Origin: Lacinutrix sp. Bg11-31
GTDB taxonomy: Bacteria > Bacteroidota > Bacteroidia > Flavobacteriales > Flavobacteriaceae
Assembly (NCBI RefSeq): GCF_002831665.1
Contig: NZ_CP025118.1
Span: 1-64,000 of the forward strand
Reading direction: 5' to 3'
Length of the DNA stretch: 64,000 nucleotides
Under the pieces are notes generated by a model, which was not told the origin of the DNA, searched no databases, and was given only the letters and a program-made list of their open reading frames with translations. Shown here in pieces: positions 1 to 6,908 of this stretch (positions are counted from its first letter, which is position 1; the number at the start of each line of letters is the position of its first letter). The position numbers and the translations under genes were made by a program.

Positions 1-65
1 GTTTTAAACCTTTTTTGAAATACTTTAACTATTTAGAATACCACAGACTTAAGTTGATAGGCCTT

Positions 66-164
66 GAGCGAGTGATAGCAGCGGCATCCTTTTTTTTGTT
101 GCACTTATGCAAAAAAAAAGATATAGCGGATAGCACAGTTTTTATTTTTATAAAAACGCACCAT
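66..164 (+). repeat. Flavobacterial-type intergenic repeat, copy 1 (upstream of retron cassette)
   Basis: The segment contains GCGGCATCC followed by a T-run, then an A-run and GATATAGCGGATAGC, and ends in a small stem of GTTTTTAT / ATAAAAAC with a TTTT loop (139-158) and CGCACCAT. The T-run and A-run can pair. The same head and tail occur at 6751-6908 with a different middle, so this is a dispersed repeat and not chance similarity. It contains no gene. Its function is unknown; position at gene ends suggests a transcript-end or REP-like element, which is inference. Confidence 0.6.
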
Positions 165-259: not shown

Positions 260-3200
260 TTGAAAATAATTAAACAAAAAACATTATACTTTTCAGAAGG
301 TAAATCGGATAAAGTTTATGAAGTGGACCTTTGTGAATCGGGCTCAGATTTATTTATAGTCAATTTTAGATACGGTAGAAGAGGTGCTAGTTTGAGAGAA
401 GGTACTAAAACGGTATTTCCTATAGCTTATGATGAAGCACTTGTAATATTTAATAGTTTGGTTTCTTCTAAAAAGAAGAAAGGTTATAATGAGGAATTAT
501 CTTTGATTACTAACGAAACTCCTGAGGTTAATATTGAATTAAATGTAGGAAGAGAGGATACCATAATAAAATATTTAAAGGATGCTGTTTTAGGTGTATA
601 TGTTAGAGATTGGAAGGTTTCTAGAATTATAATGAGGGCTTCTTTTTTTAATATAGTTAAATCTATACCACATATAAATCACTTTATTGACTCTAAAGAT
701 GCTTTTGAACAATATGCTTCTATTTATTCATTATCTAAATTCAATGATGTTTCTAACATAGATAAGATTTTTGATGTATTTGATTCTAAAGGTTTTATTG
801 ATAAAGTTGGTCGTGTTTGTGCTTCTTATATTTTGAAGCTTGGTGATGAGAGCTCTAAATCTAAAGTTAGAGATCAAGCTTTAGTTAATTTACCTGAAGA
901 ACTTAAAATTCATATTAGAAACACCGATGCTTTTTTTAATGCATTATCAATTTACTTTTTAAAAGATAAGGATATTGATGGATCGGTATTATATTACTGT
1001 TATTTATTTTCTATTAATGATATTTCATTTAAAAAACAATTATATGCTTTTATAGATAAAGCTCCTTTAAAGGTAAACTTTTTTAAATCTATACGATATA
1101 TTTATAGGGCTTCGCATATTTTAAACGATGTTAGTTTTTTTGCGTTAACATCTAAAAGAATAGCCATTAGTAAACCAGGTTACACTTCTAATTATTTGTA
1201 TGTAAATAATGAATGGACTAATGCAGATACAGAGAAGCAAAAAACAAATCCTTCAATAGCGTTTTCTAAAAAAACAAAGAATTATTTTAATAAGACTACT
1301 TATCAGTTTATATACGACATAAGTAAAACTAATAAAACGTTATATGTTGAGTATGCTAAATCTCTTTTAGTGTCACTTGATGATGCATTAGATAATGCTA
1401 AAGAAGATGTTCAGTATCATTATAATTACAATAATGAAACGAGGAAATATAATACAGAGAAACGCGTTTTCCCAAAATATCATGAGTTTTTAGCATTGAT
1501 GTATATTGTTTACGGAAATTCTACTCGATTACAACACCAGAGTAATAAATGGTTTTATTTAGAAAGTGACACAAATAATTTAACAAGAGAAGACGCTCTT
1601 ACTAAGCTATGGGATTCTAAACCAGATGAAGTTGTTTATATATTAGCAAATGCTAAGAGTGAAATAGCTGTTGAATTTGCTTTAAGAATTATTAAAGACA
1701 ATAGTCATTTTTTAGAAAATATAGATGATGAGTTATTAGAACAGTTAGTATCTCATTATCATCCAAGAGTATTAGATATCATTTTAGATATTGTAGAACA
1801 AAGATTTCGATTAATTAAACCAGAAAGTTCTTTATTAATAGGATTAATTAAAGCCAATAATGACAGAGCAAATACTTTAGGATTTAATTGGTTGAAAAAA
1901 TATGAGTCTGATTTTTTCGCTGAAACTAGTTTTATAGAACGACTATTATTAATAGGTAAAGAAAATGTTATAGATTATTTAAAGGAAGTATTTGATAGAT
2001 CTATTAAATACAATCAACCTTTAAATATAGAAAACTTTAATAGTTTATTTAATTCACCTTCAATATTTACATTAGAATATCTTATTGAAGTAAATAACTT
2101 AATAGGAAATACTAACTTTGGAAAATTACTAAGCTCTGTTTCTGAAGAAAAGATAAAAGCGTTAGCAACCTCAAACATTGATATAAATAAATTATTCGCT
2201 GCAAATTTAGCTAAGCAAAATATTTTACCAACTTATCAATTATTTAAAGACACTGTTGATGGTTATATAAATTCGGAAAACCCACAATTGCGTCAAGTTG
2301 GAATCGAGTTATTATCTCATTTCCCAGATGAATTTCTTTTAGAAAATCATTATAGAATAAGTGCTTTTTGTTTTTCAGAATATGATGAAGTTAGAGAGGC
2401 TATTCAACCAACAGTTGAAAAACTAATTCGGTTAGATGAAAGCTTTAAAAATAATCTTTTTAAATCTTTAGTTCGAGCGGTTGAAACCTCTGAAACTTAT
2501 GAAGGATTGCATAAAAACTGTTACACTCTTTTAACATCTAATTACAAACAGTATTTAAGTAGTATATCTCAAGATAGTATATTTGGATTGCTACTATCTA
2601 ATTACGATTATGCCCAGAAATTGGGAGAACCTTTATTTAATGAGCATGTTGATATAGAAATACTATCTATAAACGCCATTGTTCAATTGGCAAATAGTGA
2701 CATTTTTACAATTAGAACTATTGTAAAGGACTATTTTAAAAATCATATACCTAAAATTAATTACGAATTAGAAACTGCATTATTAATTTTTAATTCCGAT
2801 TGGGAAGACATAATTACTTGGGCTTGTACTTATTTTGAAGAACATATTAAATCTGAAAATTGGTCAACAAACATGTTGCTTTATGCATGCGATCACACAA
2901 AAATGGAAGTTCAGTATTTTGGTCGTAAAATGATAACACAACATTTTAGTGATGAAAAAGGTTTGCCTTTATTATTGAAACTCCAAGAACATCCTACAAA
3001 AGCAATGCAATTTTTTGTAACGAATTATTTAGATAATTATGCAAAAGATAATGAAGAAATTATCCTAAAATTAGAAACCTATTTTAAAACATCCTTGTTT
3101 AATATTAATGAAAATAGAGTTGCAAAAACAAGAGTTTATACATTTTTGGAACAAGAGTCTATTAAAAACAAATCTGTTGCAATTATGACAACACGATTAG

Positions 3201-3319
3201 TAGAAGCCGTTTTAGGGACAAATACAATAACAGATACCAGTAATAATATAGACATACTGTTAACTATTGCCGAAGCATATCCAGATATTGAAATTCCATT
3301 ATTAATAAAACAGAATTAA
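260..3319 (+). CDS. Retron effector: WGR domain plus ARM/HEAT-like repeat protein
   Basis: This 1019-residue protein has a WGR-type domain at residues about 1-80, with the signature region FRYGRRG in which the usual Trp is Tyr. WGR domains bind nucleic acid ends or breaks, as in PARP proteins. The rest is long, all-helical and repetitive, consistent with ARM/HEAT-type repeats, with no visible catalytic motif. It starts with TTG at 260; the next in-frame ATG would remove the WGR domain. It is cytoplasmic, with no signal peptide. The stop is 4 bp from the next gene, so the two are co-transcribed, and a retron RNA and RT follow. By context it is one of the two effector/accessory proteins of a type XIII retron. 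Proposed role (inference): a nucleic-acid sensing scaffold held in check by the RT-msDNA complex. Confidence 0.8.
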   Translation: MKIIKQKTLYFSEGKSDKVYEVDLCESGSDLFIVNFRYGRRGASLREGTKTVFPIAYDEALVIFNSLVSSKKKKGYNEELSLITNETPEVNIELNVGREDTIIKYLKDAVLGVYVRDWKVSRIIMRASFFNIVKSIPHINHFIDSKDAFEQYASIYSLSKFNDVSNIDKIFDVFDSKGFIDKVGRVCASYILKLGDESSKSKVRDQALVNLPEELKIHIRNTDAFFNALSIYFLKDKDIDGSVLYYCYLFSINDISFKKQLYAFIDKAPLKVNFFKSIRYIYRASHILNDVSFFALTSKRIAISKPGYTSNYLYVNNEWTNADTEKQKTNPSIAFSKKTKNYFNKTTYQFIYDISKTNKTLYVEYAKSLLVSLDDALDNAKEDVQYHYNYNNETRKYNTEKRVFPKYHEFLALMYIVYGNSTRLQHQSNKWFYLESDTNNLTREDALTKLWDSKPDEVVYILANAKSEIAVEFALRIIKDNSHFLENIDDELLEQLVSHYHPRVLDIILDIVEQRFRLIKPESSLLIGLIKANNDRANTLGFNWLKKYESDFFAETSFIERLLLIGKENVIDYLKEVFDRSIKYNQPLNIENFNSLFNSPSIFTLEYLIEVNNLIGNTNFGKLLSSVSEEKIKALATSNIDINKLFAANLAKQNILPTYQLFKDTVDGYINSENPQLRQVGIELLSHFPDEFLLENHYRISAFCFSEYDEVREAIQPTVEKLIRLDESFKNNLFKSLVRAVETSETYEGLHKNCYTLLTSNYKQYLSSISQDSIFGLLLSNYDYAQKLGEPLFNEHVDIEILSINAIVQLANSDIFTIRTIVKDYFKNHIPKINYELETALLIFNSDWEDIITWACTYFEEHIKSENWSTNMLLYACDHTKMEVQYFGRKMITQHFSDEKGLPLLLKLQEHPTKAMQFFVTNYLDNYAKDNEEIILKLETYFKTSLFNINENRVAKTRVYTFLEQESIKNKSVAIMTTRLVEAVLGTNTITDTSNNIDILLTIAEAYPDIEIPLLIKQN

Positions 3320-3323
3320 TTGT

Positions 3324-4952
3324 ATGCAGTTTAATTATAAATATGGAGGATCGAGTAGTGTAAACAATGGAGTGTCTGCAACAGATGTAAGTTTTGCTCC
3401 AGACACTTTAAGAGAGCCAACATTTTTTGTTGGAACTTTAGATAAAAAAATCCCTTTTAGGGAAGCTATTTCAGCATTACATCATGTTGTAGTTGCCGAT
3501 TTTAATTTTCAGCCAAAAGATAATACTGAATATTTAGCTTGGTTAAAAAGCCAAGAAGAGATTTGGTTAGCCGAGGCGAGTTCAGATTTATCAACATTAC
3601 AAACAGAAATTCATAATGTGCGTTCGCAATTAGAAGGACTTCGTAAAGAACGCGATGTCATTATGAAACCTTACTATAAAGCACAACGTAACTATTTTAA
3701 TTATCTATACAAACGCGATATGGATGCTTGGATGGTATTGGATCCTGTAATTACAGTGCATCCAGACCAGGTGTTTTTTGAATGTTTTAGTAAAGATGAA
3801 TCCGTTTACGGAAAATTATCTTGCGGCTATGATATCTTTAATAATATAAGTGATTTTAAATGCGGTACAACCAACATTGATTATTCGAAGAAATTATATG
3901 AAGAATTTCAGAAAATAAGAACCTATAAGGAAACAGATTTAAAAATTGATCCTAAAGGTTTTGATGTAAAAACAACAGGAGAAGAAAACTACAGAGAAGT
4001 AAAAATAGATTTACCTGATAGTTGGGTTCGTGGATTTCTTCAAGTAAGTACAGCAATGACCTCTAAAAAAGTATCTTTTGAATTAGAAGCTATTGATATT
4101 GCTAATTTTATTTCAGTATTAAAAAGAAACAAAGAACGAAAAGGACCACGTTCTATAAAATATATATTAAAACCTGGCGAACCTATAATTGCTGTTTTCA
4201 AACCTTGGAATATAGAAGTAGTTTGTAAACAATCAATATATAATGGAGATTCGGCTCAAGAAATTAGAGTTTGGGGAAGACGTCGTATTCTACTTTTAGA
4301 ACGTTTATTACCAATAACGGACAGGTTTACAGTACACCTTTTAGGTAATGGAATGCCTTCGTTTTATACAGCACATTTAACTTCCGAAATGTATTTTACT
4401 TTAGGACTTTCTGGATGGACAGCTAATGATTGGACACAATCCAGCCAATTAGATTTATTATCTCCAAGAGGTCAAGTACCTGCAACAACAATGCAAAGTG
4501 TGTATTTAGAATTACGAAAACATTGGTTTGCAAGCGAAGCTGAAATTGCTAAAACTATGAACTTAGATGTATCGGTTGTAAATAAATCTTTAGAAACATT
4601 TACTCAAGCAGGTAAAGTTATTTTCGATTTAAAGAATAAAGTATACCGTATTCGCGAACTTAAAAGAGAAGGAATAGATATAGAATCTTTACGTTTTTCT
4701 AGTGAAACTGATAAAGAAGCTTATAAATTAATGGAGCAAAATGCGGTGTCCGATTTAAAAGTTGAAAATAGAAACGATAAAATTACACTTAAAAGTATTG
4801 TAAGTAATAAATACAAAGTTGTTGCAACAATAGACAACGATTTAAAAATTGTAGATGGTAGTTGCACATGCAGTTACTATTCTGAGAATAAAATGACAAA
4901 AGGACCTTGTGAGCATATATTAGCAACAAGAATCACTTTTGATAAAAAATAA
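3324..4952 (+). CDS. Retron effector: winged-helix and SWIM zinc-finger protein (WHSWIM)
   Basis: This 542-residue protein ends in a SWIM zinc finger, CxC...CxH, visible as CTCSYYSENKMTKGPCEH at residues about 515-532. It is preceded by a winged-helix-like segment at about 395-450 (EAEIAKTMNLDVSVVNKSLE, then a wing ending in YRIREL). Residues about 85-115 form a charged, coiled-coil-like stretch. The central 200 residues are not recognised. SWIM domains chelate zinc and bind DNA or protein. The gene follows the WGR/ARM gene by 4 bp and ends 18 bp before the retron RNA. That spacing leaves almost no room for a separate promoter, so effectors, RNA and RT are probably on one transcript. The pairing with an ARM protein and a retron RT is what I recall for retron type XIII. 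Confidence 0.82.
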   Translation: MQFNYKYGGSSSVNNGVSATDVSFAPDTLREPTFFVGTLDKKIPFREAISALHHVVVADFNFQPKDNTEYLAWLKSQEEIWLAEASSDLSTLQTEIHNVRSQLEGLRKERDVIMKPYYKAQRNYFNYLYKRDMDAWMVLDPVITVHPDQVFFECFSKDESVYGKLSCGYDIFNNISDFKCGTTNIDYSKKLYEEFQKIRTYKETDLKIDPKGFDVKTTGEENYREVKIDLPDSWVRGFLQVSTAMTSKKVSFELEAIDIANFISVLKRNKERKGPRSIKYILKPGEPIIAVFKPWNIEVVCKQSIYNGDSAQEIRVWGRRRILLLERLLPITDRFTVHLLGNGMPSFYTAHLTSEMYFTLGLSGWTANDWTQSSQLDLLSPRGQVPATTMQSVYLELRKHWFASEAEIAKTMNLDVSVVNKSLETFTQAGKVIFDLKNKVYRIRELKREGIDIESLRFSSETDKEAYKLMEQNAVSDLKVENRNDKITLKSIVSNKYKVVATIDNDLKIVDGSCTCSYYSENKMTKGPCEHILATRITFDKK

Positions 4953-4970
4953 TATTATATTTAAACCCAT

Positions 4971-5201
4971 GGTAGTGATAAGATAAAAACCTTGCATTTT
5001 GATTGGTGTATCGCCAATCTTGCTTAAAGACACCGAACGCATCACTGACTCGAACTTAACTTGTGAAATAGGTACTAGTGTACTATTTCCGGTTAGACTT
5101 CTGCGAAGTGAAATAATACACTAGTACCTATTTCACTGGAGTTGTTCAATTCAGTCTTGAGAATAGTACGAAGGGAATACAACATACATCTTATCGCTAC
5201 C
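4971..5201 (+). ncRNA. Retron msr-msd non-coding RNA
   Basis: Inverted repeats a1 (4971-4984, GGTAGTGATAAGAT) and a2 (5188-5201, ATCTTATCGCTACC) pair over 14 bp with one G-U. After a1 there is an msr-type hairpin: 5001-5008 with 5012-5019, TAT loop, one G-U. The msd-type hairpin is long: 5063-5082 pairs perfectly with 5117-5136 (20 bp), then one C-A mismatch, then 5084-5089 with 5110-5115 (6 bp), then a bulge at 5090-5096 and a terminal 5-bp stem 5097-5101/5105-5109 with a TGC loop. a2 ends 12 bases before the RT ATG. This is the standard retron layout of a1-msr-msd-a2-RT. The branching G cannot be assigned by eye. Confidence 0.88.
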
Positions 5202-5213
5202 TTTTTTTATTAT

Positions 5214-6716
5214 ATGAAAAATTCTACAGAAAGAAGACAGGAAATTTATGATAAAATAAAAGCGTCTTCTAAACAAGAATACATACTTTCTGAAATGAAA
5301 CGTTTGGGTTTTTGGAATCAAGAAGAGCTTGATTTTAAAAGTGTAAACGCATTTTTTAAAGAAGAATCTCAACTGTCTAAAGAATTACAAAAGCTTTTAA
5401 AGGAAAAACGAATTATTGAAGATCCTGAAGCTTTTTTAGCAAAAAAGCATCAAGAACGTAAATTAGCTTCTAAACAATCTCAAAAAGAAACTAAAGAAAG
5501 ACGAGAAAAAGAACGTTTAGAAAAAGCTGCACAATGGAAAGCCTCTAAAGAAAAAGAGATTCTTTACATAGGTTCTGGTTATTCTAATAACCTTAATCAA
5601 AACGAATCTGATGTTGCACGTTTAAAAACACAAAACTTACCAGTTTTAAATACTGCTCAAGATTTAGCATTAGCTATTGGTATTACGGTTGGTGAACTTC
5701 GGTTTTTGTCTTTTACTAGAAAGAACTCAAAGATTAGTCATTACAAACGATTTCAAATGCCTAAAAAATCTGGTGGTTATCGTTTAATTTCGGCACCAAT
5801 GCCAAAGCTTAAAAATGCGCAGCATTGGATTTTAGAACATATTTTAAATAATGTAAAAGTACACGACAATGCACACGGTTGTGTTATTGGTAAATCTATA
5901 AAAACCAATGCTATTCCGCATATTGGAAAATCGGTTGTTGTGAATCAAGATTTTAAAAATTTTTTTCCATCGGTAACTTATAACAGAATAAAAGGTGTGT
6001 TTATGGCTTTAGGTTACTCTAATCAAGTAGCTACTATTTTAGCATTAATATGTTCCGAACCTAAAATACTTGACGTTTCTTTATTAGGCGAAGATTATTA
6101 TGCGCAACGTGGAGAGCGTTTTTTACCACAAGGTTCGCCTTGCAGTCCTGCAATTACAAATATTTTATGCCAAAAATTAGATTACAGATTATCTGGTTTA
6201 GCAAAGAAATATAATTTCGATTATACAAGATATGTAGACGATATTACGTTTTCCGGAGCTAAGGAATGCTTACCTAAAATTACAGCATTGCTTAAATATT
6301 CTGGTAAAATTGTTAGAGATGAAAATTTCAAGTTGCATCCAGAAAAATTACGAGTAATGAAACGCAATGCCAAGCAAGAAGTTACTGGTGTTGTTGTAAA
6401 TGAGAAAGCTAATATTAGTAAAACGTCTTTAAAACGATTTAGAGCTTTATTACATCAAATAGAAAAAGAAGGAATAGAAGGTAAGTATTGGAACAAAGGC
6501 GGAAATGTCTTGGCTCAAATAGATGGTTATGCTAATTTTATTTTTCAGATTGACGAAGTAAAAGGAGCTATTTATAAAGAACGCGTAAATGCTATTCTTG
6601 TAAAATATAACTATAAGGAAGCGCATAAAAAACAATATGCACCAAATGCTAAAAAAGGAGGTTCTGGTTTATTAAGTGGTTTTATTAAAAAGGTATCTTC
6701 ATTTTTTAAGAAGTAA
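5214..6716 (+). CDS. Retron reverse transcriptase
   Basis: This is a 500-residue RT that reverse-transcribes the adjacent msd RNA into msDNA primed from a branching guanosine. Retron hallmarks are all present: NAxxH at 232-236 (NAIPH), the catalytic YVDD at 340-343, and VTG at 390-392. A QGSPCSP motif precedes the active site. Residues 1 to about 150 are an extra N-terminal part with a highly charged Lys/Glu helix at roughly 55-120. I chose the ATG at 5214 because an upstream in-frame TTG at 5142 lies inside the msd RNA. A repeat-like intergenic element follows the stop. The family assignment is firm; the retron type rests on the neighbours. Confidence 0.93.
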   Translation: MKNSTERRQEIYDKIKASSKQEYILSEMKRLGFWNQEELDFKSVNAFFKEESQLSKELQKLLKEKRIIEDPEAFLAKKHQERKLASKQSQKETKERREKERLEKAAQWKASKEKEILYIGSGYSNNLNQNESDVARLKTQNLPVLNTAQDLALAIGITVGELRFLSFTRKNSKISHYKRFQMPKKSGGYRLISAPMPKLKNAQHWILEHILNNVKVHDNAHGCVIGKSIKTNAIPHIGKSVVVNQDFKNFFPSVTYNRIKGVFMALGYSNQVATILALICSEPKILDVSLLGEDYYAQRGERFLPQGSPCSPAITNILCQKLDYRLSGLAKKYNFDYTRYVDDITFSGAKECLPKITALLKYSGKIVRDENFKLHPEKLRVMKRNAKQEVTGVVVNEKANISKTSLKRFRALLHQIEKEGIEGKYWNKGGNVLAQIDGYANFIFQIDEVKGAIYKERVNAILVKYNYKEAHKKQYAPNAKKGGSGLLSGFIKKVSSFFKK

Positions 6717-6750
6717 AGATTTTAGTTTTAATATTGGCCATAGTAAGTAG

Positions 6751-6908
6751 GAGCGCGAACGATAAAAACGGCATCCTTTTTTTATTATTCCCCAAAAAAT
6801 AAATATATAATAAAGCGCTTGCTTGAAAGCATTGACGCTTAAAGAAGTCCAGACTAAAAAAAGATATAGTGGATAGCGTGGTTTTTATTTTTCTTAAAAA
6901 CGCGCCAT
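6751..6908 (+). repeat. Flavobacterial-type intergenic repeat, copy 2 (downstream of retron cassette)
   Basis: This copy shares with 66-164 the head (GAGCG, CGGCATCC plus T-run) and the tail (AAAAAAAGATATAG, GGATAGC, GTTTTTATTTTT, CGCGCCAT). The middle differs and contains its own stem, AAGCG...CGCTT with inner TGCTT/AAGCA, at about 6813-6840. The rest of 6717-6958 shows no gene. It lies between the RT and the helicase and could act as a transcript end, which is inference. Confidence 0.6.

What the first reader, a model, noticed from the sequence alone, without database searches (positions are those of the whole stretch)
260..6716. Complete retron cassette of apparent type XIII (WGR/ARM + WHSWIM + ncRNA + RT)
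The sequence shows four parts in one direction with gaps of 4, 18 and 12 bases: WGR plus helical-repeat protein, winged-helix/SWIM protein, structured RNA, and RT with NAxxH, YVDD and VTG. Retrons are tripartite anti-phage systems; from memory type XIII is defined by ARM and WHSWIM partners. Few members have been studied, so mechanism, trigger and toxicity are open. Inference: msDNA-RT restrains the two effectors until a phage disturbs it.
Basis: partly seen in the sequence, partly recalled or inferred. Interest (0 to 1): 0.9.

Follow-up and report, generated by a model that had tools for sequence, protein, structure and literature searches.

The report
Complete type XIII retron defence cassette
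A marine bacterium carries a complete, apparently intact copy of a known but little-studied kind of gene set, thought to defend against viruses, that makes a small DNA hairpin from an RNA template; comparison with relatives shows where the RNA ends, that the hairpin stem is conserved as DNA would be, and that one partner protein has full-length relatives in gene pairs that lack the hairpin-making enzyme.

Summary
Window 260-6716 holds a WGR + HEAT/ARM protein, a SWIM protein, a structured RNA and a retron RT on one strand; the gaps of 4, 18 and 12 bases fit a1 at 4971, a2 ending at 5201 and the RT starting at ATG 5214. PADLOC gives WGR_XIII (1.2e-302), SWIM_XIII (1.7e-222) and RT_XIII (1.4e-179; next model 3.2e-90): a type XIII retron, a known kind. 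The RNA is well supported: 11 of 69 pairs change on both sides over 16 loci, 0 of 500 shuffles reaching that. The 27-pair core of the msd stem evolves like DNA (G.U in 0 of 432 cells, against 18 of 224 in a1/a2); 15 of 16 stems keep one C.A mismatch, a G.T in the copied DNA. Relatives show two other layouts (RNA-RT-WGR-SWIM; RNA upstream of a WGR-less operon). The SWIM protein has full-length homologues (hhalign 99.8%) paired with another WGR protein without an adjoining RT, sometimes beside MoxR-vWA-beta-propeller genes. Likely mechanism, inferred: an RT-msDNA complex holds the SWIM and WGR proteins inactive until a phage factor engages the hairpin. Activity, toxicity and trigger are untested.

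The parts
260..3319 (+). WGR + HEAT/ARM solenoid protein (WGR_XIII), 1019 aa, TTG start
   Evidence: PADLOC WGR_XIII 1.2e-302; Pfam WGR 22.5 bits, cut-off 22; predicted N-terminal strands then a helical solenoid, mean pLDDT 74, only general HEAT/ARM matches among the rows shown for PDB; TTG at the start in 8 of 8 close loci with sequence there
3324..4952 (+). SWIM protein (SWIM_XIII), 542 aa; the winged helix is from the type's name, not shown here by a model
   Evidence: PADLOC SWIM_XIII 1.7e-222; Pfam SWIM 23.1 bits, cut-off 19.6; C514, C516, C529, H531 invariant in 10 of 10 diverse relatives
4971..5201 (+). Retron non-coding RNA (msr-msd), a1 to a2
   Evidence: z -7.79; covariation over 16 loci
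4971..4984 (+). a1 strand of the a1/a2 helix (14 pairs)
   Evidence: 100% of cells paired, 2 pairs with two-sided changes
4991..4995 (+). CTTGC motif just after a1, within 40 bases before the msr hairpin in 29 of 32 type XIII RNAs; possible neighbourhood of the priming guanosine (inferred)
5001..5019 (+). msr hairpin GATTGGTGTATCGCCAATC; core pattern found in 31 of 32 type XIII RNAs
5044..5155 (+). msd long hairpin (outer helices included)
5063..5089 (+). left arm of the 27-base core of the msd stem, with GTAC-N4-GTAC; C of the single C.A mismatch at 5083
5110..5136 (+). right arm of the core of the msd stem; A of the C.A mismatch at 5116
5188..5201 (+). a2 strand
5214..6716 (+). Retron reverse transcriptase (RT_XIII), 500 aa, ATG start, with about 135 residues before the part that matches solved retron RTs
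   Evidence: PADLOC RT_XIII 1.4e-179 against 3.2e-90 for the next model; Pfam RVT_1 6.7e-20; retron Ec86 RT 1.2e-40, residues 135-416
63..144 (+). Flavo-1 RNA element, left flank of the cassette
   Evidence: Rfam RF01705 52.7 bits, gathering 42
6732..6887 (+). Flavo-1-like element, right flank, below the gathering score
   Evidence: 39.1 bits

Best explanation
It is an apparently intact type XIII retron. The transcript 4971-5201 folds; the a1/a2 helix presents a priming guanosine; the RT copies the msd into a hairpin DNA (established for retrons in general, not shown for this one). The msDNA-RT complex binds the winged-helix/SWIM protein, which reads the hairpin stem, and through it the WGR-HEAT/ARM protein, keeping the pair inactive. 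A phage factor that binds, cuts or changes the hairpin, or meets the fast-evolving solenoid, frees the pair and stops the infected cell. Shown here: the parts, their conservation, the DNA-like evolution of the stem core, and co-inheritance. Inferred: every binding and activation step.
For: Family identity of all three proteins. RNA structure by covariation. In the inner msd helix all 9 pairs that vary among standard pairs do so on both sides, and the 27-pair core has G.U in 0 of 432 cells, against 18 of 224 in a1/a2, as expected if the stem works as DNA. Partners stay with the RT over order changes. All three genes are under purifying selection in the pairs computed: dN/dS SWIM 0.04-0.08, RT 0.05-0.10, WGR 0.12-0.21. 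By analogy, in type IX retron-Kva2 the winged-helix protein holds the msDNA stem loop and a phage helix-turn-helix protein is the trigger (PMC13405049, abstract and passages).
Against: No enzyme domain was recognised in either window partner protein, so what would stop the cell is unknown. The SWIM model was too poor to use (mean pLDDT 40.7), so a winged helix that binds the hairpin is not shown. The outer part of the msd hairpin does hold an invariant U.G pair (16 of 144 cells), so DNA-like evolution is seen only in the core and the apical helix. No msDNA, toxicity or phage data. The usual TAGC/AGC priming sequence (PMC6868368, passages) is not at the end of a1 and the priming base is not identified.
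Confidence: 0.6

Rival explanations
1. The WGR-SWIM pair is the working unit of an older conflict module that does not need an RT, and the retron part is only its sensor; the effect is on nucleic acid or transcription by binding, not by an enzyme.
For: SWIM_XIII and a second SWIM family are homologous over 431 columns (hhalign 99.8%, 1.5e-28; BLASTP 21% over 409 aa). 17 of 20 such SWIM genes have the other WGR gene next to them, and no RT match was seen in 8 of 8 larger regions examined. No enzyme domain found in the window proteins.
Against: The two WGR proteins align only in the WGR domain (73 columns, probability 84). bpX/MoxR genes were seen in only 2 of 8 larger regions, besides L100, so a joint system is not general. 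Direction of exchange unknown.
Confidence: 0.3
2. The msDNA acts mainly by titrating a host repair protein such as MutS through its conserved G.T mismatch, and defence is secondary.
For: One C.A mismatch and no other in 15 of 16 close loci and in 19 of 32 over the type XIII RNAs examined. Mismatched msDNA is reported to sequester MutS when overproduced (PMC6868368, passages).
Against: 13 of 32 stems have no mismatch, among them 9 of 10 of the RT-WGR-SWIM group and L051 in the close group. PMC6868368 says msd stems generally contain mismatched or wobble pairs, so a mismatch is not special to this type. Does not explain the conserved partner proteins.
Confidence: 0.07
3. The cassette is a decayed or inactive remnant.
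For: Not found at the same site in 5 of 9 genus members examined.
Against: All frames open, RT YVDD present, purifying selection on all three genes, compensatory changes in the RNA.
Confidence: 0.03

Closest known systems
Type XIII retrons (PADLOC-DB 2.0.0 models RT_XIII, SWIM_XIII, WGR_XIII, HEAT-ARM_XIII)
   Same: All three protein models match as best hits over nearly their whole length.
   Different: No difference in kind. In relatives: order RT-WGR-SWIM with the RNA still before the RT (10 loci), and a WGR-less form with a like RNA upstream of the operon (L053, L054).
Type IX retron (retron-Kva2; HEPN + winged helix)
   Same: Two partner proteins, one a winged-helix DNA binder, with RNA and RT in one operon (PMC13405049, abstract and passages).
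   Different: The partner here is WGR-HEAT/ARM, not a HEPN RNase; the winged helix is joined to a SWIM zinc finger. The RT scores 8e-48 on RT_IX and 1.4e-179 on RT_XIII.
WGR (DUF6493/DUF7824/DUF7825) + SWIM gene pairs without an adjoining RT, some beside MoxR-vWA-beta-propeller ternary systems
   Same: SWIM protein homologous along its length, WGR partner next to it (17 of 20).
   Different: No RT seen in 8 of 8 larger regions; the WGR partner shares only the WGR domain.

Membership tests
Type XIII retron | RT of the type XIII clade | tested here: met
   RT_XIII 596 bits against 301.6 for the next model; tree, 16-member clade 100/100. The join to the WGR-less form (3 rows) is not resolved.
Type XIII retron | WGR/HEAT-ARM partner | tested here: met
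   WGR_XIII 1.2e-302
Type XIII retron | winged-helix/SWIM partner | tested here: met
   SWIM_XIII 1.7e-222; SWIM ligands invariant in 10 of 10. The winged helix itself is not shown by a usable model.
Retron | msr-msd RNA with a1/a2 repeats next to the RT | tested here: met
   14-pair a1/a2 helix, 11 of 69 pairs with two-sided changes, 0 of 500 shuffles reaching that
Retron | priming guanosine in AGC or a near variant at the inner end of a1 | tested here: inconclusive
   No TAGC/CAGC there; TAAGAT ends a1 and CTTGC follows. The WGR-less form has GTTAGC.
Retron | RT motifs NAxxH, YXDD, VTG | tested here: met
   TNAIPH, YVDD, VTG in the translation; that these motifs mark retron RTs is recalled
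Retron | msDNA is produced | not testable with these tools
   needs RT-DNA sequencing
Anti-phage defence system | protects against phage | not testable with these tools
   needs phage challenge

The most novel reading that the evidence does not exclude
The WGR-SWIM pair is a transferable conflict module of its own that works with different sensors: an msDNA-RT in type XIII retrons, and none or a MoxR-vWA-beta-propeller machine elsewhere. Type XIII retrons then arose when a retron RT and RNA were joined to such a pair, and the hairpin, held as DNA with a GTAC-spaced site and often one G.T mismatch, is the element the SWIM protein reads.
Probability: 0.3. Interest if true: 0.65.

Novelty: new member of a known kind. 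Interest (0 to 1): 0.45.

Why it matters
Type XIII is a catalogued retron type, and the searches of the held library found no study of its mechanism; one paper lists it as a PADLOC call (PMC11953036, passage). Subscription papers are mostly not in that library. A set of 33 loci with defined RNA ends, gene-order variants and a fast-evolving solenoid gives concrete constructs to test. If the SWIM-WGR pair is a module shared with RT-less gene pairs, its effect can be studied without the RT.

Full report
WHAT IS THERE. The window is the start of the contig of a Flavobacteriaceae genome close to Lacinutrix (nearest relatives L002, L003, L009). Frames 260-3319, 3324-4952 and an RT ending at 6716 lie on the + strand. 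The PADLOC best hits are WGR_XIII 1.2e-302, SWIM_XIII 1.7e-222 and RT_XIII 1.4e-179, the next RT model being 3.2e-90. Pfam adds WGR, SWIM and RVT_1. The NCBIfam retron models match below their cut-offs. The RT starts at ATG 5214: the PADLOC match starts there, and 8 relatives offer only one start in that stretch.

THE RNA. Over 16 close loci (window, L002-L009, L046-L048, L050-L052, L057; L049 is the same contig as L004 and was left out) the mean column identity is 91%. The structure has 69 pairs in 5 helices: 98.6% of 1104 cells paired, 11 pairs and 29 cells with changes on both sides, against 3.8 and 7.2 in shuffles, 0 of 500 reaching either. Slid versions fall to 32-46% paired. The measure 'further pair types' is not above shuffles (92 of 500). 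The structure was taken from the window's own fold, which favours it in the slide control. RNAalifold gives a similar structure of 79 pairs, also with 11 such pairs.

THE STEM CORE EVOLVES LIKE DNA. In the 27-pair core of the msd stem G.U occurs in 0 of 432 cells, in a1/a2 in 18 of 224 (Fisher 2.5e-9; rows are related, so not a true probability). Elsewhere: msr hairpin 16 of 128 and outer msd helices 13 of 112 and 16 of 144, each from a single pair; apical msd helix 0 of 80. In the inner msd helix 9 pairs vary on both sides and none on one side only; in a1/a2, 4 vary on one side only. This fits selection on reverse-transcribed DNA, where G.U would become a mismatch. 15 of 16 stems have exactly one non-Watson-Crick pair, always C.A at one of two neighbouring positions; L051 has none. 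Over 32 loci, 19 have one C.A, 13 have none, and none has any other (the script penalises mismatches, so longer imperfect stems could be cut short).

RELATIVES AND LAYOUTS. 33 type XIII loci were examined. (a) WGR-SWIM-RNA-RT: 16 close loci, and L059 (Methylobacterium plasmid), L066 and L067; L065 shows SWIM-gap-RT on a 3066-base contig. (b) RNA-RT-WGR-SWIM: 10 of 10 loci of one genus. (c) A WGR-less long protein, then SWIM, then RT with no room for an RNA between the last two: L053, L054, L058. Its first protein matches HEAT-ARM_XIII 2.1e-12 and WGR_XIII 2.7e-12 in L053 and only WGR_XIII, 6e-8, in L058, with no Pfam WGR match in either; L054 was not scanned but is 63% identical to L053. In L053 and L054 a like RNA lies upstream of the operon. 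The msr hairpin pattern is in 31 of 32 RNAs, TACGAAG in 29 (shuffled 0.001 and 0.021), CTTGC before the hairpin in 29. 14 other RTs found with the same model (L020-L033) showed no SWIM or WGR match at 1e-5, but only about 1.5 kb or less of flank was held. In a 38-row tree the 16 close RTs form a 100/100 clade; the 21 WGR-bearing type XIII RTs join at 84/91, which is below the tool's mark; the WGR-less form stands apart with its place open.

FREQUENCY. RT_XIII: 10 of 397 genomes of the family at E <= 1e-144 (23 at 1e-60, the rest being other RTs), 6 of 395 of the phylum at 1e-90 (2 of these also), 9 of 299 of one genus and 2 of 13 of another family at 1e-120. SWIM_XIII: 4 of 395 of the class at 1e-30. 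0 of 14 control genomes in each of these five searches.

SELECTION AND SITE. dN/dS over seven pairs (six for WGR, one being saturated): WGR 0.12-0.21, SWIM 0.04-0.08, RT 0.05-0.10; the neighbouring helicase, three pairs, 0.02-0.05. The WGR domain and the C-terminal part (about 881-960) are better kept than most of the solenoid. The C-terminal part is also what the WGR-less form shares (157 columns, probability 93.8). Of 9 genus members looked at before the helicase gene, 4 (window included) have the cassette there and 5 do not; of those 5, L086 and L087 hold only 121 and 615 bases upstream. In L083 the cassette follows 23S and 5S rRNA. In L085 the 5S gene is followed directly by the helicase gene, in L087 by a Flavo-1-like stretch, in L088 by other DNA; L084 shows no 5S. 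dS between window and L009 is similar for cassette (0.57-0.76) and helicase (0.52), so the cassette is unlikely to be a recent arrival.

THE WGR-SWIM PAIR WITHOUT AN ADJOINING RT. In L100 a second WGR (DUF6493) + SWIM pair stands between the retron and bpX genes. Its SWIM protein aligns to the window's over most of its length, and profiles align over 431 columns at 99.8%. Such SWIM genes are in 19 of 199 genomes of that genus, and 17 of the 20 loci held have the WGR gene beside them (two of these at 27-32% identity). In 8 larger regions no RT match was seen and 2 show bpX/MoxR genes. The WGR proteins are alike only in the WGR domain. The window's own genome has no other WGR match and no other SWIM match at 0.01. 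The beta-propeller ternary systems are described in PMC7159879 (passages); WGR does not occur in its text and 'swim' has 0 in the listing.

MECHANISM. Inferred as stated in the best explanation. The nearest worked example is type IX retron-Kva2 (PMC13405049, abstract and passages). The retron priming rule and MutS titration are from PMC6868368 (passages). The 2020 paper that defined the types was not held and is recalled.

VERDICT. The new value lies in the comparative facts above.

Noticed in passing
window 63-144 and 6732-6887: Two Flavo-1 elements in the same orientation flank the cassette; the genome has at least 44 matches, 40 over the cut-off (150 of 844 candidates scored). L087, without the cassette, shows one Flavo-1-like stretch by eye at the site, not reported by Rfam at the gathering score.
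   Followed up: partly
L003 5909-6837: An insert of about 930 bases with a lipoprotein-like frame lies between SWIM and the RNA, with TATTATATTTAAACCATGGTA at both ends.
   Followed up: no
L060 7510-11812, L099 9041-15840: bpX3, bpX0, bpX2, bpMoxR and bpX4 genes of a MoxR-vWA-beta-propeller system (Pfam) lie convergent to the retron; bpX matches in 7 of 10 loci, one of them a piece.
   Followed up: partly
L060 upstream of 934: In the RT-WGR-SWIM layout a terminator-like hairpin stands between the RNA and the RT gene (by eye in the sequences).
   Followed up: no
window 260: The WGR gene starts with TTG in 8 of 8 close loci with sequence there.
   Followed up: no
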